A stretch of 64,000 bases of DNA. Source: Cliona cf. orientalis (Eukaryota > Porifera > Demospongiae > Clionaida > Clionaidae). The position numbers were made by a program, and so were the translations under genes. How positions within the stretch are numbered: position 1 is the first letter of the stretch; each line of letters begins with the position of its first letter. Location of the stretch: NCBI GenBank assembly GCA_963930775.1, contig OZ005693.1, positions 6,014,001 through 6,078,000 of the forward strand, read 5' to 3'. Positions 33,212 to 61,950 of this stretch are shown piece by piece. Under the pieces are notes generated by a model that saw only the letters and a program-made list of their open reading frames with translations, made no database searches and was not told the origin of the DNA.

Positions 33212-33283
33212 AGGTTCCGCCGAGATTTGAACTCGGATCTTGGGATTCAGAGTCCCAGGTGCTAACCGTTACACCACGGAACC
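33212..33283 (-). tRNA. tRNA-Gln (anticodon CTG)
   Basis: A full cloverleaf can be drawn. The acceptor stem is GGTTCCG paired with CGGAACC. The D arm has TGGTGTAACGGTTAGCACC. The anticodon stem is TGGGA/TCCCA around loop CTCTGAA (anticodon CTG). The T arm is CGAG-TTCAAAT-CTCG. The discriminator is T. It has no intron and is almost identical in plan to animal tRNA-Gln genes. It lies between the CDK20 stop codon and the MANF promoter, on the same strand. Confidence 0.95.
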
Positions 33284-40873: not shown

Positions 40874-41629
40874 TCAGAGTTTCTGTCCAATGCCAATCCC
40901 ATCAGAAACAGGCAATAGGGCAAAATCTATGCGAGAATCTTTCAGCATAACATCATTCATTCTGCGGATTGAATTGGTTGAATCTGATTGGTTGGAAACA
41001 TCGGCCACTGCTCCACTCCACAGGGCATTGTCTACAACAATCAATCCTCCCCGTCTGAGGAGCTGAAATCCAAGTTCAAAGTATCTGACGTAATTATCTT
41101 TATCAGCATCAATGAAGATGATGTCAAAAGTATCCATTTCTCCATCATCAATGAGTTCTTGTAAAGTTTCAGTTGCTGGTTTCAAACGAAGGTCAATTTT
41201 GCTTGCAACACCTGCTTGTTCCCAGTATGGTTTACCCATGCTTGCATACTCATCACTAACATCACATGAAATCACTTTTCCGTCTTCAGGAAGAGCTAGG
41301 GCCATGGCAACCGAGCTGCACCCAGTAAAAACACCAATATCAAGTGCTTTGCGAGCATTAAGTCCTCTACACAAGATTGCCAGCAGCTTCCCCGTTTCAA
41401 CACGCGTAGTCATCCTTCCCCGTCGATGGCTCAAAGACATGGCACGTAACTGACTCAGGGAAGCATCTTCAATATTGTGATCATTTAGATATTTTATCAC
41501 AGGGTCAGATGATGAGCGACTATTCCACGATTCCTTTCGAGCACTTTTGCGACCAAGATAAAACGCTCCAACAGAAATAATTCCAACTCCGCCTGCAATA
41601 GCTGCAGTCAATTTCCAATCCATCTTCAA
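40874..41629 (-). CDS. COMTD1: COMTD1-like SAM-dependent O-methyltransferase
   Basis: This is a class I methyltransferase of the CCoAMT/COMT-domain group. It has 251 residues in a single exon, close to human COMTD1 (262). An N-terminal membrane anchor (LTAAIAGGVGIISVGAFYLG) is followed by a basic stretch, as in COMTD1, which is membrane-associated (reported at mitochondria). The SAM-binding motif I is ALDIGVFTGCSSVAMALALP. The acidic SAM-ribose and metal-binding region is VISCD and then FIDADKDNY. The C-terminal half has GGLIVVDNALWSG, where the Asp-Asn pair binds the metal in this family. Everything needed for activity appears present. The physiological substrate is not known. The gene is divergent from VWA1, with about 275 bp between start codons. 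Confidence 0.88.
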   Translation of the reverse strand: MKMDWKLTAAIAGGVGIISVGAFYLGRKSARKESWNSRSSSDPVIKYLNDHNIEDASLSQLRAMSLSHRRGRMTTRVETGKLLAILCRGLNARKALDIGVFTGCSSVAMALALPEDGKVISCDVSDEYASMGKPYWEQAGVASKIDLRLKPATETLQELIDDGEMDTFDIIFIDADKDNYVRYFELGFQLLRRGGLIVVDNALWSGAVADVSNQSDSTNSIRRMNDVMLKDSRIDFALLPVSDGIGIGQKL

Positions 41630-41904: not shown

Positions 41905-44730
41905 ATGGAAGATAAGTTTGGTTTGATCCTTAAACTTCGAGGAAAGTGGACAGCCTCTCCCCTCAAGGATGTCACAGTGGAGGCGGAAATTCAGGGATAC
42001 GTTCTGGGGCTGGAGTCAACCCTCAAGTACGCCAACGAGTCCTCTGAGCCCGCCGAGGTCGTGTTTCGGTTCCCCTTGGAGCAATCTCACGCTATCGTTG
42101 GACTTACTGCCATCATTGATGGTCGAAAAATCAAGGCCCAGCTCAAAGAAAAGGAGGAGGCTCGTGCAGACTATGATGATGCCTTGGCCAGTGGACAGAC
42201 GGCCGCTCTGGCAGAAGAGAAGAGTGGAGACGTGTTTAGTATCAGCCTGGGGAACCTCCCAGCTGGGAAAGAAGCAGAGATCCATCTCAAGCTTGTTGGA
42301 GAGCTCGAGATCGATGCAGAAGGGAGTGTGCGCTTTTCCCTGCCGTCCAGCCTCAAGCCGAGGTACAGCCCCACTGGGTCGTCAGATCCACTGGCTGGAG
42401 TTGGGGGCGGGGCTCAAACACAGGTGGAGCAGGCAAGCACCTCCTGTGTGCAGCACTTCCAGCTCACTGTGCTCAATGCTCAAGAGGTTGCTGAAGTAAT
42501 TTCTCCAACACACACGATTACAACCACACGGAGCAATGGTGGAGATAGGATAGGCGTAGTCCTGGCTGGTTCAGAGCAACTTGTGGGAGATCTGGTGATC
42601 CTGATCAAACACACACAACCACATGCCCCCACTGCATTGGTGGAAGGTGGCTCCTCAGAGAGAGAAGGCATTATGGAAGCACCTACAGTAATGATCAACT
42701 TCTTTCCCGAGTTTGACAACGTTGACGCTGCTTGTGAGTTCATCTTCCTTGTGGACAGGAGTGGCAGCATGAGTGGTGGCTTCATCAACAGTGCACGTGA
42801 AACATTGATTCTGTTCCTGAAGAGTTTGCCAGAAGGATGTAACTTCAACATCGTTGGATTTGGTTCCCGCTATGAGAAGTTATTTTCTGCTGTAAGCGTT
42901 CCATACACCCAAGAGACGCTGGACAAGGCAACTCGGCATGCACGAGAAATGCAAGCAAACCTCGGTGGGACGGAGCTGCTTCAGCCCTTGGAATACATCT
43001 TCGGAGAAAAGACAACCTCTGATCTTCCCAGACAGATCTTTGTCCTCACAGATGGAGCTGTCAGCAATACTGATGCCTGCATCACAAAAGTCAGGCAAAA
43101 TGTCAAGAGCTCAAGGTGAGACAATCCTATACTCTTGAGATAGTGCTAGTGAGAATGAGAGCTCATCATATGCAAATCTATAGCTTCATTAAGGGGTGAC
43201 TGAGGAAGGCACAATACAAGAGTGTCAAATAATTTAATGGTTAATGGTGGTGTACTGTGTACTATAGGAATACATGGCTATTCAGAACTGCATTAATAAT
43301 TTTATTGAGAAATTTAGTCCTGATCACTTTGTTACTCCTTACTACCTCAACACTAAGTTTTGAACATCAATAATCCCCCCCTCCCCGAAATGTTAACAGG
43401 TAGGAGTTCTAGATTGATTAGCTATTGTTGTGCATACTTAATGCACTTGCAAGTGCATACTTTAATGAATGGAGTTTTATAATACCCTTTATAACTTCTA
43501 CACAGGTGTTTTACATTTGGAATTGGATCTGGTGCCTCGACTGCACTAGTGGAAGGTCTGGCTCATGCTGGTAATGGAAGAGCAGAGATTGTGAAGGAAG
43601 GAGAAAGACTACAACCTAAGGTGCTCATAACCACCCAAGACTTAGTAGATAATAATTATGTTTATATCGTTTCAACAACACAGGTTATCCGGAGCCTCAA
43701 GAGGGCCTTGCAGCCAGCAGTAACAGATGTCAGTGTAGACTTCCAACTACCAAGGAGCTATGTGGTTCAGCAAAGTCCTCAAAATCTGCCAGCCATCTAC
43801 AATGGAGAAAAAGTGGTGGTTTACGGTATCATAACTGCCAAAGGATCACCTGTGGACCAGGAAATCACTGGCAGAGCTGTTTTAAAGGGAAATATCCTTG
43901 GGAAGAAGATAGAATATTCTATTCCATTTACATTCAATGCTGTCAGCACTAGCCCTCCATCTCTCCCTACCATCCACCACCTTGCTGCAAAGGCTCTCAT
44001 CAAAGACTGGCAGGATCAGGACAGGAATAAGGAGGAAATTATCAAGTTGAGTATCGAGTCAAGTGTGCTCTCATCCCACACTGCTTTCATTGTTGTAGAT
44101 GAAACGAGTAATCAACCAGTTGCTAGTGCAATGAAGACATGGGATATTACTGCTCCTTTCATACAGACTTTTGGATGTGGTATGCCCCGGAGGCGCAAGC
44201 AAACGGCTCGGAGGAGTACTGGAGGCAAAGCTCCCAGGAGGCACTTGACATCCAGCAGGAATGTTCAAGGAGCAAGTCTTAAGAAAAAAGCTGCTGCCAA
44301 GAAAAAGGCAGCTCCCAGAAAGAGTATTGCTTTACCAAAGAGACATACAGCTGATTCTGCACCATCACCTTCCCGATCTCGAGCTCGTTCCCGTTCTCCC
44401 ATCACCAAATCTAGATCGTCCAAGAGCTCAACCATTGACCTGTATGGGATCATTGCAGGTCAGCAGGCAAATGGCTCATGGTCCCTCAACACTGCCATGG
44501 CCTGCATCCAGGGAAAGATGGCTGTAACAATGGGTGATTGTCCAATCGAGTGCAAAGGCATTGTTGCTACAGTTTGGGCTACCGTACTGATCCTTACTCT
44601 GCTGAGAAAGAAGTACTCGAGTCAACAGGATGAGTGGGAGCTGGTTGCAATGAAGGCCGAGTCCTGGGTGAAAAAGCAAGCCCTTCCAAGTGGAATCACC
44701 ATCCAAGACTTTTACACTGCTGCGGAGTGA
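41905..44730 (+). CDS. VIT/VWA protein with histone H3-tail mimic (VWA1)
   Basis: Exons are 41905-43115, 43506-43620 and 43684-44730, giving 790 residues. The start MEDKFGLIL was chosen because it aligns with the start of human VWA5A. The VIT domain (about residues 1-140) is followed by a VWA domain with a metal-site motif DRSGSMSGG, then a GTELLQPL stretch and FVLTDGAVSNTD. A C-terminal domain (IIAGQQANGSW to the end) resembles the ends of VWA5A and PARP4. Between them, 44182-44247 encodes MP-RRR then KQTARRSTGGKAPRRHL, a copy of the histone H3 tail around K4, K9, K14 and K18 with K9 and K18 as Arg. KKKAAAKKKAAPRKS and an Arg-Ser stretch (SRSRARSRSP) follow. The stop lies next to a possible donor (GCGGA|GTGAGT), so a longer C-terminus is possible. 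VWA2 at 59089-61950 is its paralogue. Confidence 0.88.
43621..43683 (+). other. 63-nt in-frame intron, possibly retained
   Basis: GTGCTCATAA...CAACACAG starts with GT and ends with AG at exactly the position of an intron in VWA2 (60373-60430). It has no stop and is a multiple of three. If spliced the protein matches VWA2; if kept it adds 21 residues (VLITTQDLVDNNYVYIVSTT and Q). Confidence 0.7.
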
Positions 44731-45429
44731 GTATCCTAAACAAAATACATGCAGCAGCAATCCACATAATATTATGCATAACATTTCTAACCCAAGCAGT
44801 CCCATTAGCTTTAATTTTATAAACTAAGACCGAACTTAGTTCCCTACAACCTAAGATTAATACCTAATCTATGGTCTCAAGTATCCAAGTACCAGTATTA
44901 GTATCACAGTGTTTCCGCTACTATACTTGAAAAGGGGCGCCCCGCCCTGTTTGTGAGTGGCTGGTTTGCAAAAATGCTGACAGCTGCAACAGTGGTTTGC
45001 AGAACAGCAGTAGCTCCCAAGTGTTGTGGGTATCTTTGGCTTCCCACAATCAGCTCAGAAGCACACAACTAGTGGTTGAAATGTACTCTCTAGTGGTTGT
45101 ACTAGTGTACACAGCACATGCACACATAATATAACAAAATTTAATTATAGTACATACATACACAGTGACTATCCAAATGCACATTGCAAAAGTAAGCCTG
45201 CAAAAGCAAATCATTCTCTCTTTATGGCCAGTATATATCCCATAATAATATTCAATGATAGTAATGTTAACCACCCTGTTTGAATTCAGTCCTAGAGGAA
45301 ACACTGTATCACTATTATAGACTTGCATAATATTATTAATGATTATTACTATTCACTAGATCAATGGCATTGTATAGCACTTAAAGTATATATATGTGCT
45401 CTAGAATTAGCGTAAATTGTTCCTTCTAT
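44731..45429. other. Gap between convergent VWA1 and PRDX5-A
   Basis: It is AT-rich. No exon or clear transposon was recognised. It would contain any extra 3' exon of VWA1 if the donor at 44726 is used. Confidence 0.5.
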
Positions 45430-48400
45430 TTAGAGCTGGTTGACAAGTTCATTTGAGAGGCTGCAAGTCAGTCCTGTCCCATCGGGCTCCACATTGAGGC
45501 GTGTCACTAGCCCATCTTCAATCACCATGGAATACCTACATGTATAAGTGAATAGTGCAATCATAATGGCTAAACTAGAGCTCTCTCAAGCACAAAACCC
45601 TTGGCATGTTGTATGGTATTAGCTACACATTTCAGTATTACACTCGGTAAACGCCTGGGGATGAGGCTACCATAACATTAAAGGGCTGAGGATGAGGCTG
45701 TTACACTCTCTTGTTCAATGGCAAACAATCCTGGTGTGTTGTATCAAACACTGCACTGTGGTGCTGGTATCAAATCAACTTCCCTCACAGTAGCCTCTGA
45801 TTCTTGGGGACATTAGCTAGCTTCTTAAAATATTTTGAAGGACTGTGATATATACAAGACTGAAGTACACTGAGCAGTATTGCATGTCCAAGATTATCGC
45901 TGTAAGTTGCTCACTTGGGTCCAAGCACTGCATGCATACTAGCTTAGCTAGGCAGAGAGAAAGGGTATCACAAGGCATGGCAGCTAAACATACATACCCA
46001 CGGTTCAGCCAGAGGGTAAAATGAAGGTTCCTTTCTGACCTCACAATAATGCTTTGATCTTTTAACCACCACCCCCTTTAAGATACGAGCTGGCTACCAG
46101 ACTGCATACCCTTAGAGTTGTACTTTTTGGCCCTCCCACCCTACTTCATTTTTCAATTTCATTGTTTTTTATACTTGTTTTAATAATAATAACCAATAGT
46201 ATATTTTTGTACTTGACACGTCTTTAGTCTGTGGTAATCATGTAATAGTGAGTTGCATACTCCCATTTCAAGATCACCAGCCAAATTTTTCTGGCCCAAA
46301 TTCAAACTAGTGTACTCTCCCAACCAACCACGATACACACAGGAAGGAGGTAGGCTACTAGCTACCCTCCATGAATGCTTGCACACAGTACTAAACGGAG
46401 ATGGTGTGCCGTTGCTAGCCACTCATCATGCATCACCATAGTTCAGTACTAATATAGAATCCCCTTTGCAGAGCAGGGTATAACAAATAAACAGATAAAC
46501 TGACCTTTTGGACCTAAGTCCCCCAAGAATAGCCCCACTGTCGAAACCAAGATCAACAGCCTACACAATAGAAAAGAACGTGCATGGTGGTTTCTGCACA
46601 CTCCAAGCACAATTTGCAATTTGAGCTACAAGAATATACCTTGGTGAATTCACCAGATGTGTCGGCAAGCATCCTAATCTTTCCGGTAGCACCCTGACTT
46701 TTGCCCCAGGCATCCATCACAAAGGCATCATTGACAGACACACAGGCGATGACCTCCACTCCCTTTGACTTTAGAACATCGTAATTGTCAACATAACCAG
46801 GCAGATGGGTCTGTGAATATATATAGTGGTTTGTTCTAACACGGGGTCAGTATAGCCTTGTGTAAATGCTGAAAGCCACTGGCACCTTGTTATGTTATAG
46901 TGGCCCTATCCATGCACAATGTAAGTATGTACAGTGTACACAAATGGACAATCATAGCTGTACCCCAGCGGCCACAGATGTTGTATATACTGTATACAGC
47001 ATTCCACCACAGATAATATAATCCATGCGTACCACAGTATATTATTACAACATCTACGGTTCCACTACAGTATTGTGACCACCACAGGCTGTAAGCTTAA
47101 TAGTTCCTGCATCCTGCAGCCCTGTACTTCCTCAGCAGATCCCACGCACGTTTACAAACACTATTGGCAAGTAAATAGGATGTTTTCATACAACAAGCAA
47201 CTGTACAATCAACAGGAGCTGAACACTTTTGATACTTTTGGGTGACTATTTTTGTGGGTACTAACATTAATTTTGATATTTCTATGGATTGGCAAAATCG
47301 CAAAAAATGTACCTGCAAAATTAATAATAATTTTTGTCACCATAAGGTAACTAATTGATGTTTCTATTACTGTTCACTGGGCACTTCACAATTAAGCAGG
47401 CAACTTAATGGTCTTGCCTAGTCACTTCAAATGTGTTCTATGCATAGGGATTCATCACCTTCAAATTGAACTTTCTGAGTGTAATAAAATAGTTTAATAT
47501 CATAGGAATTTTGAAGCAAAAGGGCTAAGTCTGGAGAGTGCTTCCAGTCTTGCTCAGGGTAAACTGCATGTACACACAAGCCTTGTATCCAGCAAGTGCA
47601 TACACATACAGCATCATCTCACATACGTTTGAACATCCTGGAGTAAAAGCTCCTGGTACAGCGAAGAGAACACCCTTCTTGCCAGCAAACATGTCCTTTA
47701 TGTTTACCAAAGTCTTTGGAGTACCTTCTTGCAGCTCCAATGAAGGAAGAACATCTCCGATCTACGTATACACGATCACAATTACACACAATAATTCGAT
47801 AGCAAGAGTCAAGTACAGTATAATTGGGCAGCAAGGATTAATACTATTTCTAGCAGGGTTGCAACTCCCATACCTAAGGCTACTCCAAGTCGTATTTCTG
47901 TTTTTGGTCTCCCGTCTGCATGCTTTTGAATGATTCCAGATTGTCCACTTTCTCAGTATTTTGTACACCACATGCATGAAGTGATGCATGAATACTAATT
48001 TTAATGATTGGAAGAACCCAGCAGCAGTACAATTTCAAGTGGCCTAAAAACAGGTATGCTCTTCATGACGACTCAACAATACTATTATTATACAGCTCAA
48101 AATTTCAGTTGAAAGTTTTGTGGGATTTGCAAGTTGATAATGATGCATGGGTGTAGGCACAATTTGTAATGGGGGGGGGGGGCCCTTGATGATCATTGCA
48201 CGCAAAGCACGCAAAAACCTTTCTGCCATTATTAAAAATGTCATAAAAATGCACTTTTGAGGAGAAATTTAATTTAACCAATTTGGTAGTGTAAAAAGAG
48301 TTTTTAGACCGACAAAAATCAACATTAATTTTGATACAAATCCATAATTCTTCCCAATAAATATAATGTAGAACCTGAAGATCTTGGAGGGGGGCTCCCA

Positions 48401-49195
48401 GTATCACACGATATGAAGTGTGGCTGGTATATAGCTCAATCACAAATTTTATTTGGCCAAACAATCGTGAAAGAGTTCGGAGTATTACAGCCTCCACTAA
48501 AAGGGGGACCACCGCTGGTATCTGTACTCACACCCATAATTGTGGTCAAGATGTCAAATATTTCATGCTTGATCCGTTAATAATCCTCTCTTGACAGGGT
48601 TGCATAATATAAAGGAGGTCCACTGGAGTCCACCCCCCACACACACACTACTACTAACAATAATAATATTATGCAAATGCAGATTTTGGATAAATTTTGC
48701 ATGTGCTCCACACAGTCAACTCTTTCACATTCCCTCCTCCAATACATGGACATCATTATGCAACCTTGCTTGCCCCTCGACCATTTATACTTGGCCATTA
48801 AATTTTCTATGCTCAAAAATTTCACCTTCATAAAATTGCTTGATCTCACTCTGACCTGTGGGAACACAGTCCCTATGTATACTATATCACATAATATTAT
48901 GGTATCTCCCATCCCCTTTCCATAAGATTGATCACACCCACCATGAAATTACTGTAAAATACAGATCAAGGGGCACATATCACCAATGAGCAAGACAATT
49001 AAATGTCAGAAGAGTATGAAACCACGCAGATCAACCTTTGTCCCCTTCAAACGCTATCACTACAGAATATAATTTAAGCACGGGTTTTATTACAGTAAAT
49101 GTACAGACCTTGATTGGCATTCTGGAGAGGGTGCCTACCGAGAAAGTCCTGCGAAGAATTCTTGAAAGAATTTGACTTGATAGTTGAAAGGTCAT
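45430..49195 (-). CDS. PRDX5: Peroxiredoxin-5, copy A (mitochondrial form)
   Basis: PRDX5 reduces peroxides and peroxynitrite using thioredoxin. Exons are 49109-49195, 47627-47761, 46640-46810, 46505-46560 and 45430-45535, giving about 184 residues. The first exon encodes an Arg-rich, Ser-rich presequence (QILSRILRRTFSVGTLSR) followed by MPIK, which fits mitochondrial import with a second start for a shorter form. The peroxidatic Cys is in PGAFTPGCS. The middle exon carries GVEVIACVSVNDAFVMDAWG. The resolving Cys is in GLTCSLSNEL. The C-terminus NQL resembles the peroxisomal tail SQL of human PRDX5 but is weaker. It is convergent with VWA1. A tandem paralogue lies upstream. Confidence 0.92.
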
Positions 49196-49501
49196 TGCTG
49201 TTATTATGCATAATATTAATATTAAATGAGGCAATCGCGCACGACGGTGACACGTGCGCTGCGTGCACGCATGCGCACATGTAACCGGTTAACCCTTGCC
49301 ACGTCATGACGTCAGCCGTGCGCATGCGCTTTTAATTTTTGGGATGGCATTGGTTTGGGCAAAGAGTAGAGAGAGCCTCCTTTAATTTAAAATGAATCTG
49401 GTCAAACCCATGCGTGCGCACGTGCGCACACAGTCACTGTAGCAGCTAAGTAACATAATAACAATTATTGGTAAATCCACAACAGTTTTGGCAATAATAA
49501 T

Positions 49502-52500
49502 CTAAAGCTGATTAATAATTTCATTTGAGAGGCTACAGGTCAGTCCTTTTCCATCAGGTTCCACATTGAGGTGTGTCACTAGTCCATCTTCAATCACCAT
49601 GGAATACCTGCATAAACACAATAACGTAATATTTACCCTGTGCATGAGCAAAATCAGTTTATCCATCTGTTGTTGTCGGCACGAAAATCACCAGATCTCG
49701 AGCTCTAGGCATTCGTGTGTGCTGTAAGCACAACGAATCCATAGATATCATTGAAAAACTGGTTTCTACATGCTTCAAATTGCTGAAAATGGCTTACTAT
49801 TGCTACAGATTGTGCATTTTCTGCTCAGCATGCCTGTGGTTTATCGACCTCATCCACTCTACTGGCATGTGTTGATGTGACTGCACATGCTTGAGTCAAA
49901 GGATCGTCAGTGTAATAACAGCTCTGCAGTAGAGTTGCAATACTACGTACGCTACAGTGGCTACAGAGCACGCGGGGTCTGTGCTCTAGAGCTGCATAGT
50001 TCTCATCAAGGTTCTCATAATGGTAGAAGGTCGTCAATATAGTGCAAACACAGTCTACAAGCCACATCGACGCCAACGCCTCAATCACAGAGATGGAGTC
50101 TGAGACCGACTCTCGACCTTGAATTTCAATGCTTCAATCACAGGAGATGAGCTCAACATCATAATTACCTCATAATTGTAGAAAAGTAAACTACTACTTG
50201 GGATGTAATGACTCATACAACAGCCGTTACACTGGAGTAGAACACTCTCCCTCTCTCTATTATACACGCTTGCCAGTATATACCAAGCTAAAACAATGAA
50301 TGAAATACTCACATAATATAGTTATAATGGTGCATGTTGTAAAAGGTCATCAATATAGTGTGCACACAGCCTATATCTGATCTGCCTCAATCGCAGAGAT
50401 CGAGTATGAAGACTTTGGCCTCGATAGTGACAGGTTTTGATGCTTCAAAGACGAACTCGACAGCATATCACTCTTGTGAGATCTCATTTCTCTATTGCTG
50501 TCAACTCTGGAAACCAAGGCTAATAGGATGTCAAGGCAATCAATGATGAGGACCTTAACAGCTAACAAAAATTACAGAAGCCATGGAGATCTCAAAAATT
50601 GGGAGTTTGGGCCGACCACAGATTCTGAACCACTTAATCTATACACGTATATTTCTCCAACGGCATCAATCATGGGTAATGATATGCAAACATGTGGAGG
50701 GGGGAAAACAAGACTACTTTTGTGGGTCACTTTTATCACTTTTATTAGATGAATGTAGAATTTGGCTAAAATGCAAAATAGTTACCCTCAGTACTCACCA
50801 TCAAATAGCTAACATAGCACTTGGCTATCTCCTGAAATCTACATATAGCTAATTATCCTAACACCTCAAACATATCAGTCTAAGTTTAAGTGATCTCAAG
50901 ACTATAATGACATTATGGATCTCTAATATGGTGGGGGCTATGGTATATAACTTCAAATCTTTCACATCTTTTTAGAGTGATTCTGGTGCATTCTGAGCAC
51001 ATTAGTTGATAGATAGCAATTATGAATTTTCGAGATTTATTTGTTGGGCTACAGCAAATTATGTGTACAGAATCGAGGCTACATGCATATAATAATGTCC
51101 TAACACAATAAAATCAGAGTAAACCCTATTCAAGTATGCACGAGTAAAATTTCTGAGGGTGTAGATAGTACATACTGTAACATACATCGTGATTTTGGCC
51201 CGCATGGGCGCTTACCCGGGACATAATTTCCATACGTTTGTATAGAAGCTGCTACATTGACCCCGTACATGGGCACTTACCCAGGAGTGGGTGCTTGCCC
51301 GGGACACTACGGTAATTACTGGGAAGGCTGGGGGGCTGAGCCCCCCTATATTTTGAACTTGTATGGAGCTCATGCCGAGTCAGTTACTAGAGTGTGGCAT
51401 GGCATTTGTATTGCATGCACATGTACTTTTTGAACTGGGCGGAGGGGGGCTGAAGCCCCCCAGCCCCCCTGGTTCTTACGCCAGTGTCTTGAACATAATA
51501 TTATTCATAGTATTTAGTGAGATGGTTTAATTACGTTACAAGATAATAGTATTATGGGCTGGTTCACTTGGCTGGTTGCATAGGCAATGGAGCCAGGCAC
51601 TTCCCCCACCCCCACCACCACCATTTCTAGCATAGTGATATCACAAAGTACATTTTCATGAAAAAATGCATCAAGATACCTACAAAGCTGCCTAGAATAG
51701 CTTTAAGAATCGATCATAGTGCAAAATTTCCACCATTTCTTTGTTCTGACAGTAGCAGTACCACTGATCGCCACGAGTGACCTTTAAAAATTTGCTTGCA
51801 ATTATTAATAGTTACCCCCCCCCCAAACAAAACTTCCTTCTGCCACCTATGTGTTGTGTTGTTTTTGTACAACTTCCGTATGAACAAATCCACACAACTT
51901 ATACCTTGCATGAAGATACCATAAAAAGCATTACGAGTTATAAGAAGTATCGCTGGATCTACACAGTACTCCTCTTGAAATGAAGCAATCGATATCCATT
52001 TTATCCATCGAGAGCTTGTCAAAAAGCAAACGAGGCAGCGGTGGTCAGCAAACATCACCACAACTTCTTAAAAAAAGCATTCAACGAAATACACACAATA
52101 TACATGAAAATGCCTAACAGCACCTTCTTTTCAATATATAAATCAGGTAACAGACATGTAGAACGACTACCGCATCTCTCACACATGCACCGAGAGTTAA
52201 TCACACCTATACCTGTTCAAGGTACATGCATGATGTCACTTTCATATGCATGATGCCACTTTCTGTTTAACAATAGGCAGGCATCAAGCAAGGTTTCAGT
52301 AATTCCGAGCAAAGCAATGTCCTCTACTCGGGCTCGGCCAAGATCATATGGCTTATTTTTCGCATGCCTTCCAAAATTTATTCTTGCTCACCACTGACAG
52401 TGAATCAAACTCCATCGCTGGCTCTAAGGATGTCAAACATGGTCAGTCACATTCACAAAAAGCTATGGTAGTTGCAGCTCCACAGTTTTATTGATTTCAT

Positions 52501-55500
52501 TCAACAGATCATAAACTTGTGCGTCAATTTTAAAACCTTGCCATTCTTTGTACAATTCGACTTTTCGGTAGCAGTAAACACTAAACATGGATTTTTATCT
52601 TGTAAAACGCTCAAAGAATGTATGTGGCTACAGCACCGCTGAACTGAATCACCCCCAAAAGTCTTTTTCACCATGTTCAAAATGATAGTCCTCTCTTGAT
52701 TAGAGACCTCTGGGTCATTTACTTGCATCAGCATTATTAGACCTTGTGGGCTACCTGCTCGATGTCACCAGTATATTTCAGTTGAAACTTTGTAATCCCA
52801 ATACTTAACTATGGAGTATCCAGCTAAGTTAGCGCAAAATACACCCCCTACATGCACGTGGTTCATAGGCCATTTTCACTTATTTATTTGAGCTGAGTGA
52901 GGACATTGTTTATACACGAAGTGTACTGCTAGTTATCATGACTCTCATTATTAGACAATAAATGACAAACCAACCACCAAATATTCTATTTAGGTAGCAG
53001 AATACACACCTTTTAGATCTGAGTCCACCGAGTGAAGCACTTTCAAAACCAAGATCAACAATCTGCAAGAGAGACACAGCATTTAATACACATGAAGTAT
53101 GAAAAGCGTATGCTACACATACACAATCTTAATAACATTATAATACTGCACCTTGGTGAATTCACCAGATGTGTCGGCAAGCATCCTAATCTTTCCGGTA
53201 GCACCCTGACTTTTGCCCCAAGCATCCATCACAAAGGCATCATTGACAGACACACAGGCGATGACCTCCACTCCCTTTGACTTTAGAAAATCGTAATCAT
53301 CCACATAGCCTGGTAGATGGGTCTGTACAGTGAAACATGAAAGACATGTCCTGACAAACAGCTTTACACCAGACATATTGGATCAAAATTCAATATTATC
53401 AAGGGCTTAATATACTATGGCCCTAATTGATATTATACATGCTCATTGTAAGTCATGCCTTGATCCTGTGAATGGATCTGCTCCTCACACTATAATCTAT
53501 CTGCTGCCATAACTTTAGTAGCCTCAATTGTTTGTCTGCAGGCCCATTCCCAGCTTCTCAATGTACAATGTATATTGGGAGGTGCAACTTAAAATGTCAT
53601 ATTCCAGTATAATGTCCCAATTAAAACTTGTGATGGTTTTTGCAGAGCTATCTTAGGAGTGGTTTTTGCGGTACCGTAATTAATCGAATATATAATGTAT
53701 GATCCAATTTAACGCAAGAAATTAGCTTTTTATGAATTCTCATGTCTATAATAATATGGAGCGATTGACGACCTTTACCAGAAAACACGCGTTTTTCAAA
53801 TTTTTTTCCATGCATTGTATTAGATTAAGTACAGTATATTTAAGGACTGCCTATGGCCTATACTACAGGTTATTAAATTTATATCAACTTCACTACTAAA
53901 TAATGTAATTATTTTATTTTGCTATTATTAATAATATTATTGTGAACATGTTATGGGATGCCTGTCTCTATTGAGATACTGCCTTCACACTGATAAAGGT
54001 AATGATCATGAGGTGTTTTAAGACAATGTACGTCTTACCTATGTTGGTATTCTTAAAGTGAGGTTTGGGTGTTATAACCTCGACCCAAAAAAATAAGTAG
54101 TTTGATGTGCCGAATATGCCAAGTTGATACACCAAAAACCGCAATGTTTCACTACAATTTTAAGCAACAAAAGCATAAACCCATATCAAAATTAATAAGG
54201 TTAGCAGATAATATCGTAAATCGTGAATATTTCGTGTCTAAAATATTTCATGCGATAAATTTTCACGTTAAACAATTTTCAGACAAACGATCCTGTACCG
54301 CATTATCGTTAATATTGCGCATGTATTTTCGTGCGTTAAATTTTCACACAAGCCAGGCTGTCCGAAAATATTTTAACAATGAAATATTCGTGATTTACGG
54401 TAGTTCTAACTAGGTATAATACAATGATTCCCCCCCCCCCCCCCCCCCCCAAAAAACCAGAAACTTTCCATCTTTGGGATGTCCCATAATACCTGCATAT
54501 ACACTCAAAACAGCTGCAATCTACCGTATAGCGGGAAATTTTCATATGGTGCTAATTTTCGTATATTTCGTATGCTCCAGCCCTTATACGAAAATAAAAA
54601 CTGCAAAAATTTGAACGTACGAAGTTTTTTTCCTTTTGCGCGTGACCTTTGACCTATACGCGCCACACGCGGTCGCTAGCTGGAGGTGCTAAATGCAAGG
54701 CTAGCTCACTGAATGTCTCTTTATCGATTCTTTGCCAAGGCGTTGAAACGAAGTGACCTTTCTGATTCCAGTGGACCGCTATCGGCATCGAAGTGATGCT
54801 AGCGTTACCGTATACCGCACGTAAGTGAGAGCGCTACCAGCTGCGCATGCGCGCAATCTCCCGCAGCAAGCATACGAAATTTAAAAATACGAAAATTTAT
54901 TCTAAGGGTGTTTTGGCCGATCATACGAAAATTAGTACCAACGAAAATTTTCCGCTATACGGTATATAATGGGTCAAAGCCCTCCAATGTTGAACCAGAT
55001 ATGCAATTGAATACCTGGTACACTATCAGACGCCACAATCACAAAAGCTGTTTTTATTATCTTGGTTAGTGACTAAATTAGTGAATGGACTATCGTATGC
55101 AAAAGATTTACCATAATATAATATAGGGAAATTTTCACAGAAGAAATTTTCGCTAATTTCGATACCTGCTTTCATTGGCAAACTTTTTATCACATTGATT
55201 TTTCTTGTCCTCTGCTAATGATCGCATATAGGATATGGTGACCTATACCATACTGGCACTTTTCTGCAATACAGAGGTAACTGGGCTTGGCGACCCAGCA
55301 GAGGGGCCTATCCATGTTGAAGGAAGCAAATTCAATCTGATCTGGCCATTAGCTTAAGTTGGTGATCAAACAGCAACACAAGTGGCCACAGGGATGAGTG
55401 CTGTAGTGGGCATGTGCGGAAATATGGAAGCTTTTGCCAAAATAAATATCATACAAGAAAGTGCCAACAATAGCCTCTGTACCAGCCACTAAAATTAATA

Positions 55501-58500
55501 GGTCTACTGGCTACCAAATAATATGGTGTTATTGCTAAAATTAATGATCATAAAAAAAAACAATCCAGTGATCAGACTGCTTCCCAGTGGCCATGCTCCA
55601 TGCACATGGATTTCTCTGAAGGAAGTGTAGTGCACACTATTAGCACATAGTCTTGCAGTGAGACTAGTTAGGACGTCTTCTTGCATACCCCAAACACTAA
55701 GTCTTGTACAAGACTGGACCCTATAATATTATATCACTGGGACATGAATCTGGGGAGGTACAATATTGCCAGTGGTCAGACCCCAAATGTGCAGAGTTCA
55801 AAGGTGACTGCTTCCAAGGCAGAGTGTGGACATGTGATATGTATCATGCTTCATCGATCATATTGATGTCGGACCGAGTGAATAATGTATCCCTCTCAGT
55901 GAATGTCGTCCCCCTTGCCTTTCCTATGAAAAATGCATATGTGCTCAATCCAAATAGTGCAAGTACTCTGAAATTGAAGATGTCAATCAGCTATGCTATC
56001 ATAAACTATAATTACCATATCACATCTACTCTGAGTCATCAGTGATCTTGAGAAACATTATTCTTTGAACTTGTAGCTTAACTACATGTACATGTATAAT
56101 ATTATTATACTGCACCTGGAAAGCTTTGATGACCTGGGGAAAATTACATGTATTAGCTAACTCCTCTCTCACTTAATTAAAAAACAACACCCACTAAGTA
56201 ACAAGTTTAGCTCACTAGGCTAGGGGGACAATCTGCCTATATGTATGTCTGACAGTAGCTAGTCAACATGGTCCAAAACTCATAGTCAACACCGTCAGAA
56301 TTAATCTTTTTTCGAAAGAAACCCACACAATCCAAGAAACGAGGCATTAAGCTTACTGCACTTGGATCATGCACGTGTCTTACATTATGATGAGCTAAAT
56401 AATTATTAGAGACTGAGTTCAAGGTCTCTACACGTTTTAAGAGACCCAAAGGCCCAGCCGGGGCTGTAGCATCCCAAAGGCAAAAAGGGTGCTACTATGG
56501 GCCTGCTAATCTTGAATAATATGACAATTGGCCTGGGGACTTGGCTACTGTTGCACAGTGCATTTTTCTTTGCCCTTGGCAGCCCAGTAATAGACCTACA
56601 TGTACTTAGAAGACCTCTCCAAGGGGTCTAGAAGTGAACTGAGCGGTCTCTAAGTGAAATAATGGACCTCCAAATGACCATTAGGATTGCTGCATTTGTT
56701 ACAACTACACATGTATATACCGTAGTGTTCCAGGCAAGCGCCCATGGGGGCTTCAACATACATGTAATTTTGGCCTGCATGAGCGCTTATCATACAACTT
56801 CCAGTTGCAAAAAATACAACAATCTGATTGGTCAGTTGGAAGTCCATTATTTCACTTAGAATAATATTATAGTTGGGCCATACCAATTTGAATATATGTT
56901 TCTCGGATCCGGCGGGTCACATTTTGCTGAATTCCAAAAAAAAAGGGTGTGGTCAAGTGTTGGAAATAATAAACTGTATATCGACAAGGCGCACGCGCAT
57001 TAGTGCTGTCCTACGTAATCGACAGTGCACGTACGTGCGGCCTAAGCTATTGTCAGCTGATCTCTCGTTCTAGCTCGAGCTAGCTATCTTTGATTAGAGA
57101 AATGGCTGTGTCGTCTGCATGGCTAAGCGTCGTTGTAAAACGGGCGGAGACCGTGATCAAACCCAGAGAAATATTGAAATGTTCTTGGACTGACATATTT
57201 GGTTCTCTTCTTTTAAGTATGGTAGTTTTGGGGCTTTGTTAACAGACATGTGGCTTTTTATATCACTGTATTATGGTTTTGTTTGAACTTTGCATTGATA
57301 ATAATCAGATTCAGACCAATTTAATTTGTTGTTGCTCGGATATTGTGAGGTAAAAATTGGACCGAGCGATCGAAAAAAAAAGGCAATTGGGGTGTGGTTA
57401 TAGACCATAATCTAATTAAGACAGACTAATGTGACTATTAATTTTTAGGAACCAGGGAATCAAGATAGAATACAAAAACCACTCTACTGTACATAAGCTC
57501 CACCCAACTTACATGTAATTAATTTTTTCTTCTGTTTGCCCAAAAATTGGAGCGAACGAATCCGTGCAACAACTGGTCTGGCCTAATGACCAACCAGATT
57601 GCAGAATTCATAGTTGTAACAAATAGATTGCAGTTTTCATAGTTGCATGTATTAATTACTACAAGATTTTGATAGAATCCCTACAATTTTGTATCCTCAG
57701 ACTATTACAACCACATTATGATCTAAACTTGAATCTTAGACACTGCTTAGGAGGGTTCTATTCTAAATCATGTATACAGAAACTTCTATCGAACTAATAT
57801 GTAAAGACCTTGGACTTGGTCTCTAACTATTATATAGAAGCTGCTACATTGACACCTTGAAATGTGGTACATAGGATTACAGGGGGACAAAATTAGCTCG
57901 TGAATAATATCCTAGCTATAGGGGGACAAAAAATGTTGGGGGACAATTTGAACATTCCTTAATGAGGATACTGTCCAGGGGAGTGTCATAGTGTGGCTGC
58001 ATAATTCGATGTTCACAGTAGAACTTGAAGAATCAGCGGTTTACTTGGGTCTGTCATGCTGTCCATGGTCCCCCAGACTGTCCACTGCGCCGTGTTTAGT
58101 CCCCCCCCCCCCCCCCCCAAGAGGCTATTAAATCCTGTGCTAACCATTTGTACCTGATCATGAAATCCAGCCCCTGACCCGGCAGGGGGACCATGCATAG
58201 TTGCTATGGATAGTCCAGGGACCACTTATAGTAGAGCTCCTATTATTAGCCCATTAAACTTAGTGGCTACCTAGTATAAAAGGTGATGGAAGTATGTGGG
58301 GTAATATGCTATACCAAGGCTTTATAAGCCCTTGGCTGTACCTTAGAGCACCCCGGAGTAAAGGCTCCGGGAACAGCAAATAAAATCCCCTTCTTTCCTG
58401 CAAATAGCTCTTTTACATCAATTGTGGTCTTTGGATTTCCCTCTTGTAACAACACAGATGGAAGCGTATCTCCAACCTGCATTGTATTAGAACGATTCGC

Positions 58501-58533
58501 TACGTAGCTCTTCAAGTCATATCGATCGATCAT
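49502..58533 (-). CDS. PRDX5: Peroxiredoxin-5, copy B
   Basis: Exons are 58342-58533 (or 58342-58476 if an upstream exon is used), 53152-53322, 53010-53062 and 49502-49607, giving about 173 residues. The peroxidatic Cys is in PGAFTPGCSK and the resolving Cys in GLTCSLSNEI. The exon 53152-53322 codes a protein segment almost identical to copy A. The first exon can start at MIDRYDLKSY, which has no mitochondrial character. Alternatively CAG|GTTGG at 58476 is an acceptor, as in copy A, with an unseen upstream exon. Introns are 5.0 kb (53323-58341) and 3.4 kb, much larger than in copy A, and are filled with repeats. One codon is missing in the small fourth exon relative to copy A. The C-terminus is INQL. 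Confidence 0.88.
49625..50012 (-). mobile_element. Family 1 miniature element, degraded
   Basis: TTTACCCTGTGCATGAGC at the left and GCACGCGGGGTCTGTGCTCT, AGAGCT at the right match the family ends. It lies in a PRDX5-B intron. Confidence 0.5.
50013..53009. other. PRDX5-B last intron, no clear gene
   Basis: An open frame on the minus strand at 52501-52734 (VSNQERTIILNMVKKTFGGD, then VQRCCSH) looks protein-like but is not recognised. A degraded element with GGGCGCTTACCCGGGACA and GTGCTTGCCCGGGACACTAC lies at about 51200-51315, and a related fragment is near 56720-56800. A C-rich run is at 51813-51823. Confidence 0.4.
53667..53832. mobile_element. Repeat family 5, copy 2 (inverted)
   Basis: GGTACCGTAATTAATCGAAT at the left and TGTATTAGATTAAGTACAGT at the right, with GACGACCTTTACCAGAAAAC inside. 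It is the reverse complement of 19937-20112 with divergence. Confidence 0.7.
54212..54405. mobile_element. ~190-bp miniature inverted-repeat element
   Basis: The ends ATCGTAAATCGTGAATATTT and AAATATTCGTGATTTACGGT are inverted copies. The interior TTTTCACGTTAAAC/GCGTTAAATTTTCACAC motifs repeat. Confidence 0.65.
54429..54451. repeat. Poly-C run
   Basis: About 22 C followed by AAAAAA. Similar C or G runs occur at 10974, 15344, 39995, 48171 and 58100. Confidence 0.85.
54523..54963. mobile_element. 440-bp miniature inverted-repeat element
   Basis: The ends TACCGTATAGCGGGAAATTT, TC and GAAAATTTTCCGCTATACGG, TA are perfect or near-perfect 22-bp inverted repeats. TTTCGTATG and its complement recur inside. 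There is no transposase. Confidence 0.8.
55690..56043 (+). other. Unidentified open frame in PRDX5-B intron
   Basis: A frame of about 113 residues from 55704 reads GPYNIISLGHESGEVQYCQW, then DPKCAEFKGDCFQGRVWTC, and ends in a stop at 56043. Four Cys lie within about 30 residues, which could suggest a small extracellular domain. It starts without a clear signal peptide and no partner exon was found. It may be a relic exon. The family is unknown. Confidence 0.3.
56050..58341. other. PRDX5-B first intron, remaining part
   Basis: It contains a CCGTAGTGTTCCAGGCAAGC fragment at about 56720 and a poly-C run at about 58100-58117. No recognised exon. Confidence 0.45.
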
Positions 58534-59088
58534 TCAAACCTCAATTGGCATCTTGCAATTTTGGTCAAACTACAGCCCTGGGGCTATACGGCGGTGTCAC
58601 AGTATATTAATTTTGACATCCCAGGAAATTTGGCACTCCCATCCCATATATATAGTGGATATTATGCATCCCGCTAGGATATTTGGAACCCCCTTGTGAG
58701 TAAGGAATTCTGGTACCCCCTACCTGGCAAATATCCTAGAAATCTTGACACCCCACTATTCACCCTCTTTTGCCTCTGAGGTGTCAGAAAGCACAGGATA
58801 ACCTCCTGTATCGATCGGCGCTGTGTGCGAGAAGGGGTTCAATATTTCCTAAGGGGTACCATTGGGAATACTGTATATCCTAAGGAAATGTGGCATGGGG
58901 GAGCAAATTATCCTAGGATATCTTGCACGGGGGTACCAAAAAGGGGGGATGTCAGAATTACTGTGACACGTGTTCTCTGATACAAGGCGGGGCAAAAATT
59001 TAGATAACTAGTCTAACACAACAATACAGCAAAATTACAACCAACAGCTTCGCCATACATGCATATATGTAGAGACTACGTAGTCATG
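58534..59088. other. Gap between VWA2 and PRDX5-B
   Basis: The 3' end of VWA2 lies 555 bp from the PRDX5-B start on the same strand. Short phrases such as ATCCTAGGATAT and GGTACC recur as imperfect inverted repeats at about 58600-58950. No PRDX5 presequence exon was found here. Confidence 0.45.
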
Positions 59089-61950
59089 TTAAATTATAGC
59101 TTCAGCAGCAGCCTTATAAAAGTCTTGAACAGTGATTCCACTTGGAAGGGCTAGCTTTTTCATCCACGACTCGGCCTTCATTGCAATGAGCTCCCATTCA
59201 TCCTGTTCACTGGAGTACTTCTTTCTCAGTAGAGTAAGGATCAGAACGGTAGCCCAAACAGTAGCAACAATGCCTTTGCACTCACTTGGACATGCAGCTT
59301 CAATCACTGTCTGTGGCTTATCCATCAACTTTGTCACTGTGCCATCAAACTTCCATGAACCATCAGCTTGTTGAGCAGCAATGATAGAAGACAGTCTATC
59401 ACCGTGACTGGATGCAGCAGCAGTGGATGAATGTTGAGGTGGTAATCTTGAAGATGCTGATAAAGTACTTGAATTCAATGCCCTTGCTAATTCAAGATTA
59501 CTTTGATTTTCTTCCAATTTCATGCATTCGAGTTCTTCTTCAAGATCATCAATATCCAACTCTTGATCATGAAAGCTGTCAGAGTCAGAGTCAACTCTGG
59601 CCAGAGAGTCTTCAACTGCTGCACTTCTGACAGCCCTCCTCTTGGTATCTGGTTTAGATGATTCACTTTTACTACCAGAAAGGCGACTTGATAAACCAGA
59701 AAAGAGTGAACCAAATGAAAATCCACTTTTTTTCTTAGCTTTCTTATAGAAGGCTGTTGAAGAACAGTTGAGATCCTCAGCTTTCTCCAATAAGTCATCA
59801 AGACGATCACCTCTGGCTAGCATTGAATCAATATTTGACGACATTGCCATGGAAATAGCAGCAGTTTGTTGTTGAAGACACTGAATACTCGACTCTTCTG
59901 GTGCTTGAATATCCCATACCTTCATAGCACCCGTGATAGGCTCACTATTCCCTTCATCCACAGCAATGAAAGCAGTGTGGGATGAGATCACACTTGACTC
60001 GATACTCAACTTGATAATTTCCTCCCTATTCTTGTCCTGATCCTGCCAGTCTTTGATGAGAGCCTTTGCAGCAAGGTGGTGGATGGTAAGGAGAGATGGA
60101 GGGCTAGCATTGACAGCATTGAACGTAAATGGAATGGAAAATTCTATCTTCTTCCCAAGGATATTTCCCTTTAAAACAGCCTGAGAAGTGATTTCCTGGT
60201 CCACAGGCGATCCTTTGGCAGTTATGATACCATAAACCACCATTTTCTCTCCGTTATAGACGGCTGGCAGATTTTGAGGACTTTGCTGAACCACATAGCT
60301 CCTGGGTAATTTGAAGTCTACACTGACATCTGTTACTGCTGGCTGTAGTGCCTTTTTAAGACTCCTGATAACCTACAGTACATCCACAATTGCATAAAAA
60401 ATGATCTATTGTGAGAATAAGATATTATACCTTTGGCTGCAATCTCTCTCCAAACTTAACAAACTCTGCTGTTCCATTCCCAGCATGGGCCAGACCTTCT
60501 ACTAGTGCAGTCGAGGCACCAGATCCAATTCCAAACGTAAAACACCTACACATAATAATGGAAGTAAATACACTTATCACATCATGCAAGCAACATAAGG
60601 CAATTATACTAATAGCTGGCTCGTAAGGAGCATTGCATACAAGAATTTTGATAAGTCATGGGTGTATCCACTATCTAGTGTCATTGTACTCATTGGGAGT
60701 AAATATGAAGCAGTGCCCTAAAATTAATACCTTGTAGTTACTGCATTTTCCTTCATCTTCCTGATGCAGGCATCAGTGTTGCTGACAGCTCCATCTGTGA
60801 GGACAAAGATCTGTCTGGGAAGACCAGAGGTTATCTTTTCTCTGAAGATGTATTCCAAGGGCTGAAGCAGCTCCGTCCCACCAAGATTTGCTTGCATTTC
60901 TCGTGCATGCTGAGTTGCCTTGTCCAGCGTCTCTTGGGTGTATGGAACGCTTACAGCAGAAAACAACTTCTCATAGCGGGAACCAAATCCAATGATATTG
61001 AAGTTACATCCTTCTGGCAAACTCTTCAGGAATAAAATCAATGTTTCACGTGCACTGTTGATGAAGCCACCACTCATACTACCACTTCTGTCCACAAGGA
61101 AGATGAACTCACAAGCAGCGTCAACGTTGTCAAACTCGGGAAAGAAGTTGATCATTACTGCAGGTGCTTCCATAATGCCTTCTCTCTCTGAGGAGCCACC
61201 TTCCACCAATGCAGTGGGGGCGTGTGGTTGTGTGTGTTTGATCAGGATCACCAGATCTCCCACAAGTTGCTCTGAACCAGCCAGGACTACGCCTATCCTA
61301 TCTCCACCATTGCTCCGTGTGGTTATAATCGTGTGTGTTGGAGAAGTTACTTCAGCAACCTCTTGAGCATTGAGCACAGTGAGCTGGAAGTGCTGCACAC
61401 AGGAGGTGCTTGCCTGCTCCACCTGTGTTTGAGCCCCGCCCCCAATTCCAGCCAGTGGATCTGACGACCCAGTGGGGCTGTACCTCGGCTTGAGGCTGGA
61501 TGGCAGGGAAAAGCGCATATTCCCTTCTGCATCGATCCCGAGCTCTCCAACAAGCTTGAGATGGATCTCTGCTTCTTTCCCAGCTGGGAGATTTCCCAGG
61601 CTGATGTTGAACACGTCTCCACTCTTCTCTTCTGCCAGAGCGGCCGTCTGTCCACTGGCCAAGGCATCATCATAGTCTGCACGAGCCTCCTCCTTTTCTT
61701 TGAGCTGGGTCTTGATCTTTCGACCATCAATGACGGCAGTCAGTCCAACGATAGCGTGAGACTGCTCCAAGGGGAACCGAAACACGACCTCGGCGGGCTC
61801 GGAGGACTCGTTGGCGTACTTGAGGGTTGACTCCAGCCCCAGAACGTATCCCTGAATTTCCGCCTCCACTGTGACATTCTTGAGTGGAAGGGCTATTTGC
61901 TTGCCCTTAAATAAAAGCCCAACCTTATCGATGATACTCTGCATGACCAA
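59089..61950 (-). CDS. VIT/VWA protein with embedded R-SNARE helix (VWA2)
   Basis: Exons are 60731-61950, 60431-60545 and 59089-60372, giving about 872 residues. The start is MVMQSIIDKV (or the second Met). The VIT domain and the VWA domain with DRSGSMSGG and LTDGAVSNTD are nearly identical to VWA1. After MKVWDIQAPEESSIQ a synaptobrevin-type R-SNARE segment follows (59727-59890): LQQQTAAISMAMSS, then NIDSMLARGDRLDDLLEKAE, then NCSSTAFYKKAKK. The zero-layer Arg is the R of MLARG. Ser-rich and acidic coiled stretches (DIDDLEEELECMKLEENQ) follow. The C-terminal domain runs SIIAAQQADGSW, ATVWATVLILTLLRKKYSS, EWELIAMKAESWMKK. No membrane anchor follows the SNARE helix, unlike a true synaptobrevin. 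The family is clear; the SNARE insertion is read from the motif only. Confidence 0.88.

What the first reader, a model, noticed from the sequence alone, without database searches (positions are those of the whole stretch)
41905..61950. Two paralogues with one scaffold and swapped inserts: a possible cargo slot for vault particles
Seen: VWA1 and VWA2 are nearly identical through VIT and VWA and up to MKTWDI/MKVWDI, then unrelated, then similar again from IIAGQQANGSW/IIAAQQADGSW to the end. One insert is the H3 mimic, the other an R-SNARE. Known: PARP4 has VIT and VWA domains and its C-terminus binds major vault protein; VWA5A has a related C-terminus (LQ..DG.W, then a helix with WAT.L..., then EWEL). 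Inference: the C-terminal domain may load these proteins into vaults while the middle insert is exchangeable, giving a family of vault-delivered modules. This could be an undescribed system.
Basis: partly seen in the sequence, partly recalled or inferred. Interest (0 to 1): 0.92.

Follow-up and report, generated by a model that had tools for sequence, protein, structure and literature searches.

The report
Twin VWA proteins with different linkers
Two neighbouring genes encode nearly the same VIT-VWA scaffold protein but carry unrelated linkers, one resembling the histone H3 tail and one a vesicle-fusion (R-SNARE) motif; their shared end piece is a distant relative of the domain that ties PARP4 into vaults, but nothing found here shows that they enter vaults.

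Summary
VWA1 (+, 41905-44730, 790 aa) and VWA2 (-, 61944-59089, 870 aa) are three-exon VIT-VWA genes: near-identical up to WDI, unrelated across a 100/174-residue linker, similar again to the end. One linker holds an H3-tail-like stretch (16 of 21 identical), the other an R-SNARE motif with its zero-layer Arg and no evident membrane anchor. The C-terminal domain (CTD) is real (AF2 pLDDT 92 with an alignment; bacterial relatives), and its family profile matches the PARP4 MVP-interacting domain better than every scored permutation, so the guessed homology is supported. Vault loading is not. The CTD is 25-29 residues shorter than PARP4's domain at the end that MVP affinity needs. Its one high-probability structural match is a trypanosome flagellar doublet protein. 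Bacterial CTD and MVP largely occur apart (8 and 0 of 247 genomes in one phylum, 0 and 36 of 195 in another), with a weak association in a third. 'Swapped inserts' is better read as old paralogues whose exon 1 was recently homogenised by gene conversion (dS 0.09 against 0.30-0.47; introns unalignable) around a linker that varies family-wide. No genome of the window is held, so MVP and further paralogues could not be checked.

The parts
41905..44730 (+). VWA1 gene, exons 41905-43115, 43506-43620, 43684-44730; 790 aa; VIT (aa 20-129), VWA (aa 279-431), linker, CTD
   Evidence: splice model with GT-AG ends and open frame; Pfam VIT E 7.5e-32, VWA_3 E 1.4e-24
44149..44448 (+). VWA1 linker, aa 598-697, very basic (27 K/R, 2 D/E in 100)
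   Evidence: no alignment with the VWA2 linker beyond shuffles; composition
44191..44253 (+). H3-tail-like stretch RRKQTARRSTGGKAPRRHLTS, aa 612-632; Arg at the places of T3, K9 and K18, Lys kept at K4 and K14
   Evidence: PDB H3 peptides, best E 2.3e-4; 0 of 20,000 shuffles reach the score
44449..44727 (+). VWA1 C-terminal domain (CTD), aa 698-790
   Evidence: alignment with VWA2 and bacterial CTDs
59089..61944 (-). VWA2 gene, exons 61944-60731, 60545-60431, 60372-59089; 870 aa; VIT (aa 21-130), VWA (aa 280-433), linker, CTD
   Evidence: splice model; Pfam VIT E 1.4e-30, VWA_3 E 8e-26; PARP4 620-1202 E 2.2e-37
59386..59907 (-). VWA2 linker, aa 599-772, 174 aa, rich in Ser and acidic residues
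59731..59895 (-). R-SNARE motif, aa 603-657, Arg in the zero layer, no hydrophobic anchor after it
   Evidence: Pfam PF00957 40.2 bits in the whole protein, 43.4 in the linker alone; VAMP4 and YKT6 chains E 3.5e-5 to 7.7e-5; register and identity 20 of 58 with VAMP4
59092..59385 (-). VWA2 CTD, aa 773-870, helical bundle
   Evidence: AF2 with a 6-row alignment: pLDDT 92.3, pTM 0.87; single sequence only 49.3
41952..43102 (+). tract of VWA1 exon 1 that is 96.0% identical to VWA2 60744-61894: recent gene-conversion tract (inferred)

Best explanation
VWA1 and VWA2 are two intracellular VWA5A-type VIT-VWA proteins. Each has a folded VIT/VWA scaffold, a long linker, and a small helical C-terminal domain. 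The pair is an old inverted duplicate; exon 1 was homogenised recently by gene conversion, while the linker, which varies in length and sequence across the whole family, diverged freely. In VWA1 the linker became a basic, H3-tail-like segment, most likely a nuclear-import signal and/or a lure for readers of the H3 tail. In VWA2 it became a soluble R-SNARE motif, most likely one that pairs with Q-SNAREs without fusing membranes, as tomosyn and amisyn do (analogy from recall). The CTD most likely folds back on the VWA domain or binds a partner and so controls access to the linker, as proposed for Dictyostelium Vwa1. Shown here: gene models, linker motifs, CTD fold, CTD family, CTD-PARP4 homology. 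Inferred: gene conversion. Not shown: any binding, any localisation.
For: Pfam VIT, VWA and Synaptobrevin above their cut-offs. H3-like and SNARE-like scores exceed all 20,000 shuffles each. Zero-layer Arg kept. dS: exon 1 0.087, exon 2 0.47, exon 3 before the linker 0.30, CTD core 0.35; introns and 500-bp flanks unalignable; exon 1 against exon 3 nt differences Fisher p 2.5e-8. In 13 bacterial relatives measured, the distance from the end of the scaffold to the CTD is 92-195 residues (not measurable in 6 more), and the four scanned whole have no Pfam domain in it at E<=0.01. CTD fold pLDDT 92. The Dictyostelium and human VWA5A CTD, on a long disordered loop, is predicted to pack on the vWFA domain (PMC10539598: passages; section 22).
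Against: No expression or binding data exist here. dS comes from a simple NG86 count on two sequences, and one part of exon 3 (aa 548-572) is also little changed (3 of 75 nt). The H3-like stretch has Arg at K9 and no free N-terminus, which weakens a role as a substrate or lure. That a linker without constraint would twice end with a recognisable protein motif is itself odd.
Confidence: 0.6

Rival explanations
1. One reading: the CTD binds MVP and loads the proteins into vaults, and the linker is an exchangeable payload (chromatin mimic, SNARE).
For: CTD and the PARP4 MVP-interacting domain are homologous, at the end of the same VIT-VWA layout. PARP4's domain is seen bound to the vault wall (PMC13174449, passages). 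In the phylum of G004, 5 of 7 CTD-bearing genomes have a strong MVP hit against 9 of 32 without (Fisher p 0.075); stratified over four phyla p 0.012. All 14 strong-MVP genomes there also have VIT (26 of 39 genomes do; p 0.0009). Vaults touch membranes in Dictyostelium (PMC13100048, passages and section 11), which would suit a SNARE.
Against: The CTD is shorter where PARP4 needs it: 20 and 24 residues after the last conserved Trp against 49. Against VIT-bearing genomes without CTD the association is gone (5 of 7 against 9 of 19, p 0.39). Eight CTD genomes lie in a phylum with no MVP hit in 247. In 17 stretches around bacterial MVP genes only one VIT-VWA gene and no CTD was found. VWA5A lacks PARP4's Arg1689 (PMC10450202). 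The Dictyostelium MVP proximity paper names PARPs and TEP1, and its main text does not hold the word Vwa (supplement not read).
Confidence: 0.12
2. Cassette exchange: exons or gene fragments (an H3 gene start, a VAMP piece) were inserted into one slot after a recent duplication.
For: The VWA1 stretch begins with Met-Pro-Arg-Arg-Arg-Lys, close to the start of H3 (MARTK, recalled), and runs colinear with H3 for 21 residues; the SNARE motif is full length.
Against: No intron bounds the linkers; they lie inside exon 3. Introns and flanks are too diverged for a recent duplication. The linker is variable across the family anyway. Only two copies could be seen.
Confidence: 0.2
3. The H3-like stretch is only a basic nuclear-localisation segment that resembles H3 by composition.
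For: 27 of 100 linker residues are K/R; no Pfam histone hit.
Against: Shuffles of the same composition reach 52 at most against 82; QTAR-STGGKAPR is colinear with H3.
Confidence: 0.15

Closest known systems
VWA5A/BCSC-1 and Dictyostelium Vwa1 (intracellular VIT-VWA proteins)
   Same: VIT, VWA, a long poorly conserved linker, and a homologous ~100-residue C-terminal domain (PMC10539598)
   Different: No H3-like or SNARE motif is mentioned in the passages and section I read; those come here from the linkers
PARP4 (vault PARP), MVP-interacting domain 1570-1724
   Same: VIT-VWA scaffold (E 2.2e-37) and a homologous start of the C-terminal domain (PARP4 1575-1643)
   Different: PARP4 has PARP and BRCT parts (recalled and PMC10450202 passages), a longer C-terminus needed for full MVP affinity, and Arg1689
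VWFA domain-containing protein in the T. brucei flagellar doublet (PDB 9e5c chain 4s)
   Same: Shares the CTD by sequence (E 0.0064) and by fold (Foldseek probability 0.99, TM 0.70)
   Different: Found on a flagellar microtubule doublet, not in a vault
Soluble R-SNAREs such as tomosyn and amisyn (recalled)
   Same: R-SNARE motif without its own membrane anchor
   Different: There the motif is C-terminal (recalled); here it lies in an internal linker
Histone H3 N-terminal tail and known H3 mimics (recalled, e.g. G9a)
   Same: 16 of 21 residues identical to the H3 tail
   Different: Internal, no free N-terminus, Arg in place of Lys9 and Lys18, no histone fold

Membership tests
VWA5A-type VIT-VWA protein | VIT followed by VWA | tested here: met
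   Pfam, both proteins
VWA5A-type VIT-VWA protein | C-terminal CTD with Q..(D/N)GSW, WAT, EWEL, KA..W | tested here: met
   alignment with bacterial CTDs; VWA5A itself was not at hand and its CTD is taken from PMC10539598
VWA5A-type VIT-VWA protein | intracellular, no signal peptide | not tested
   N-termini MEDKFGLILK and MQSIIDKVGL; no predictor run
PARP4-type MVP-interacting domain | sequence homology to PARP4 1574-1724 | tested here: met
   17-row profile 19.0 bits against at most 12.1 in 16,155 scored permutations; but the two sponge-like window sequences alone give 2.2 bits, reached by 331 of 14,599, and plain SW is reached by 588 and 373 of 5000 shuffles; in the PDB, PARP4 ranks sixth at E 0.17, below unrelated chains
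PARP4-type MVP-interacting domain | fold match to the solved PARP4 domain | tested here: inconclusive
   no PARP4 chain among the 50 rows shown of 125 Foldseek matches, and no match at E<=0.001 at all
PARP4-type MVP-interacting domain | C-terminal segment needed for full MVP affinity | tested here: not met
   20 and 24 residues after the last conserved Trp against 49 in PARP4; loss of the last 15 weakens binding
PARP4-type MVP-interacting domain | Arg1689 patch | tested here: not met
   no Arg in the aligned stretch after KAESW; alignment there is loose
PARP4-type MVP-interacting domain | binds MVP | not testable with these tools
   needs a pull-down
Vault-bearing organism | MVP gene in the genome | not testable with these tools
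   no genome held for the window
R-SNARE | SNARE motif with zero-layer Arg | tested here: met
R-SNARE | transmembrane or lipid anchor after the motif | tested here: not met
   Synaptobrevin match stops at profile position 56 of 89; the sequence that follows is KKSGFSFGSLFSGLSSRLSGSK, no long hydrophobic run (read by eye)
Histone H3 mimic | H3-tail sequence beyond composition | tested here: met
Histone H3 mimic | modifiable Lys9 (ARKS) | tested here: not met
   ARRS at that place

The most novel reading that the evidence does not exclude
VIT-VWA-CTD proteins are an ancient family of vault (MVP) clients, already present in bacteria, and this organism uses two of them to bring an H3-tail mimic and an R-SNARE to the vault: the C-terminal domain binds the MVP wall with lower affinity than PARP4, and the linker decides what the vault meets, chromatin readers or membrane Q-SNAREs.
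Probability: 0.1. Interest if true: 0.92.

Novelty: new variant of a known kind. Interest (0 to 1): 0.5.

Why it matters
The work links three loose ends: the poorly understood VWA5A family, the vault-binding domain of PARP4, and a bacterial CTD family that mostly lives without vaults. It suggests that vault binding by PARP4 is one use of an older domain. An internal, anchor-free R-SNARE and an H3-tail copy on otherwise near-identical proteins is an unusual pair, and both can be tested with simple binding assays.

Tried and rejected
Sequence comparison of the two window CTDs alone with PARP4 was not significant, nor was their two-row profile; only the deeper family profile was. A fold of the CTD from a single sequence was poor (pLDDT 49). 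With six rows the five models scored 92.3, 91.6, 70.5, 64.5 and 63.1; the best was used. Single-protein scans of bacterial and viral contigs found no relative. Bacterial VIT-VWA genes on plasmids (four read) had no CTD. Searches for a sponge vault paper and for synaptobrevin with VWA, and for an H3 mimic in sponges, gave nothing on point. The PDB code 9E5C found only unrelated papers in the five listed of 21, so the flagellar role of that protein rests on the entry title. A neighbourhood link between bacterial MVP and VIT-VWA was looked for in 17 stretches of 3.8-19.9 kb: one VIT-VWA gene, no CTD.

Full report
What was checked. The window is eukaryotic by its genes (spliceosomal introns); no genome is held for it, and the organism was not identified by any search. 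A sponge is my guess only.

Gene models. VWA1 lies on the plus strand, exons 41905-43115, 43506-43620, 43684-44730, 790 aa. VWA2 lies on the minus strand, exons 61944-60731, 60545-60431, 60372-59089, 870 aa. All four introns are GT-AG. Both have VIT and VWA above Pfam cut-offs. No third copy is in the window by tblastn: the remaining hits have E of 1 or worse.

Scaffold and linkers. tblastn shows 92.0% identity over 402 residues of exon 1, lower in exon 3. Between WDI and IIA(G/A)QQ the proteins are unrelated. VWA1's linker has an H3-like stretch, 16 of 21 identical, found as H3 peptides in the PDB, best E 2.3e-4. Lys4 and Lys14 are kept, but Thr3, Lys9 and Lys18 are Arg. VWA2's linker matches Synaptobrevin (E 3e-11) and VAMP4/YKT6/VAMP8 chains, keeps the zero-layer Arg, and is 20 of 58 identical to VAMP4. 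Neither linker shows a trace of the other's motif (scores 17 and 19).

How the pair arose. The 96.0% DNA identity covers 1151 bp inside exon 1. Synonymous divergence is 0.087 there, but 0.47 in exon 2, 0.30 in exon 3 before the linker and 0.35 in the CTD core; the last nine codons of exon 1 differ at 12 of 27 nt; introns and 500-bp flanks do not align beyond shuffles. Nucleotide differences in exon 1 and exon 3 differ at Fisher p 2.5e-8. I infer old paralogues with a recent gene-conversion tract in exon 1. The linker is then the part that conversion did not reach, not a slot filled after a recent duplication. Against this: aa 548-572 in exon 3 are also little changed (3 of 75 nt).

The C-terminal domain. 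Pfam has no family for it: VWA2's CTD has no hit and VWA1's only a chance-level DUF1569 hit below its cut-off. Among 80 bacterial VIT-VWA loci (the best of 421), four carry it by a first profile: L005, L006, L007, L009, the last at E 0.0076. With these, AF2 folds the VWA2 CTD as a helical bundle, pLDDT 92.3, pTM 0.87. More bacterial CTDs came from genome searches, giving a 17-row alignment.

Is it the PARP4 domain? The 17-row profile scores PARP4 1574-1724 at 19.0 bits, the bacteria-only profile at 19.5; the best of the permutations scored are 12.1 (16,155) and 11.1 (16,180). The alignment covers PARP4 1575-1642. hhalign: P 2.9e-5, probability 74%. Weaker or contrary: the window sequences alone are not significant; in the PDB, PARP4 comes sixth at E 0.17 behind unrelated chains; Foldseek shows no PARP4 chain in 50 rows of 125. 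The published AF2/Foldseek comparison of PARP4 with VWA5A (PMC10450202, passages) agrees with homology and notes that VWA5A lacks Arg1689. My reading: homologous, diverged.

Does it load vaults? Beyond the last conserved Trp, PARP4 has 49 residues, VWA2 24, VWA1 20. Removing PARP4's last 15 lowers MVP affinity about sevenfold, though binding remains (PMC5665922, passages). The best match by sequence and by fold is a VWFA protein of the T. brucei flagellar doublet (9e5c; E 0.0064; Foldseek probability 0.99, TM 0.70, E 0.40), so the domain serves elsewhere too. T. brucei may itself have vaults (recalled).

Co-occurrence in bacteria. Phylum of G001: CTD in 2 of 5, MVP shoulder in 3 of 5, both CTD genomes among them. 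Phylum of G002: CTD 8 of 247, MVP 0 of 247. Phylum of G004: CTD 7 of 39, MVP 21 of 39, of which 14 at 90 bits or more; 5 of 7 CTD genomes are among these 14. Phylum of G293: CTD 0 of 195, MVP 36 of 195. G003 has a CTD and no MVP over the cut-off. Of 50 VIT genomes (of 76) without CTD at the fetched locus, 5 have MVP. Within the phylum of G004 CTD against MVP gives p 0.075, over four phyla p 0.012, but against VIT-bearing genomes without CTD p 0.39. VIT and MVP do go together there: 14 of 26 against 0 of 13, p 0.0009. None of this corrects for kinship. So the data leave room for a link of VIT-VWA proteins with vaults, but the CTD does not carry it.

The linker in relatives. From the end of the scaffold to the CTD the 13 bacterial proteins measured have 92-195 residues, the window proteins 119 and 193. 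Length and sequence vary; the four bacterial proteins scanned show no Pfam domain there at E<=0.01.

Mechanism. Best: scaffold plus C-terminal lid, with the linker as a freely evolving binding segment. The lid idea comes from Dictyostelium Vwa1, where AF2 packs the CTD, on a long disordered loop, against the vWFA domain, in VWA5A too (PMC10539598: passages; section 22). VWA1's linker would act in the nucleus or on H3 readers; VWA2's would bind Q-SNAREs without fusing membranes. All functional steps are inference.

Verdict. A confirmed and curious observation; a correct hunch about domain kinship; an unsupported leap to vault cargo. New variant of a known kind.

Noticed in passing
window 20274-22847 (+): 857-aa open frame with Chromo, Pre-SET and SET domains, the layout of an H3K9 methyltransferase of the SUV39 kind, about 19 kb from the H3-like linker. 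The H3-like stretch has Arg at the Lys9 place, so it cannot be a Lys9 substrate.
   Followed up: partly
window 40874-41629 (-): O-methyltransferase gene (Methyltransf_3, E 1.2e-63) directly beside VWA1 on the opposite strand.
   Followed up: no
window 45428-47780 and 49500-58490 (-): Two tandem genes between VWA1 and VWA2 with paired exons (46638-46814 and 53150-53326 are 95.5% identical); they look like peroxiredoxin-5 by a recalled motif, not confirmed (one search failed). Another pair with uneven identity between exons.
   Followed up: partly
L086, L087, L109: Bacteria with long open frames (most 700-1000 aa) carrying the MVP shoulder domain, up to 158 bits; in 36 of 195 genomes of one phylum. 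Some vault reviews call vaults absent from prokaryotes (PMC9778704, abstract start in a listing).
   Followed up: partly
phylum of G004: VIT-VWA genes and strong MVP hits go together: 14 of 26 VIT genomes, 0 of 13 without VIT. In G266 a VIT-VWA gene and MVP lie about 16 kb apart on one contig (C150).
   Followed up: partly
L006 7745-8008: An 88-residue frame repeating the second half of the CTD about 2 kb downstream of the CTD-bearing gene, perhaps a broken duplicate.
   Followed up: no
window 33212-33283 (-): tRNA-Gln (anticodon ctg) by ARAGORN with the bacterial code; could be a tRNA-like repeat.
   Followed up: no
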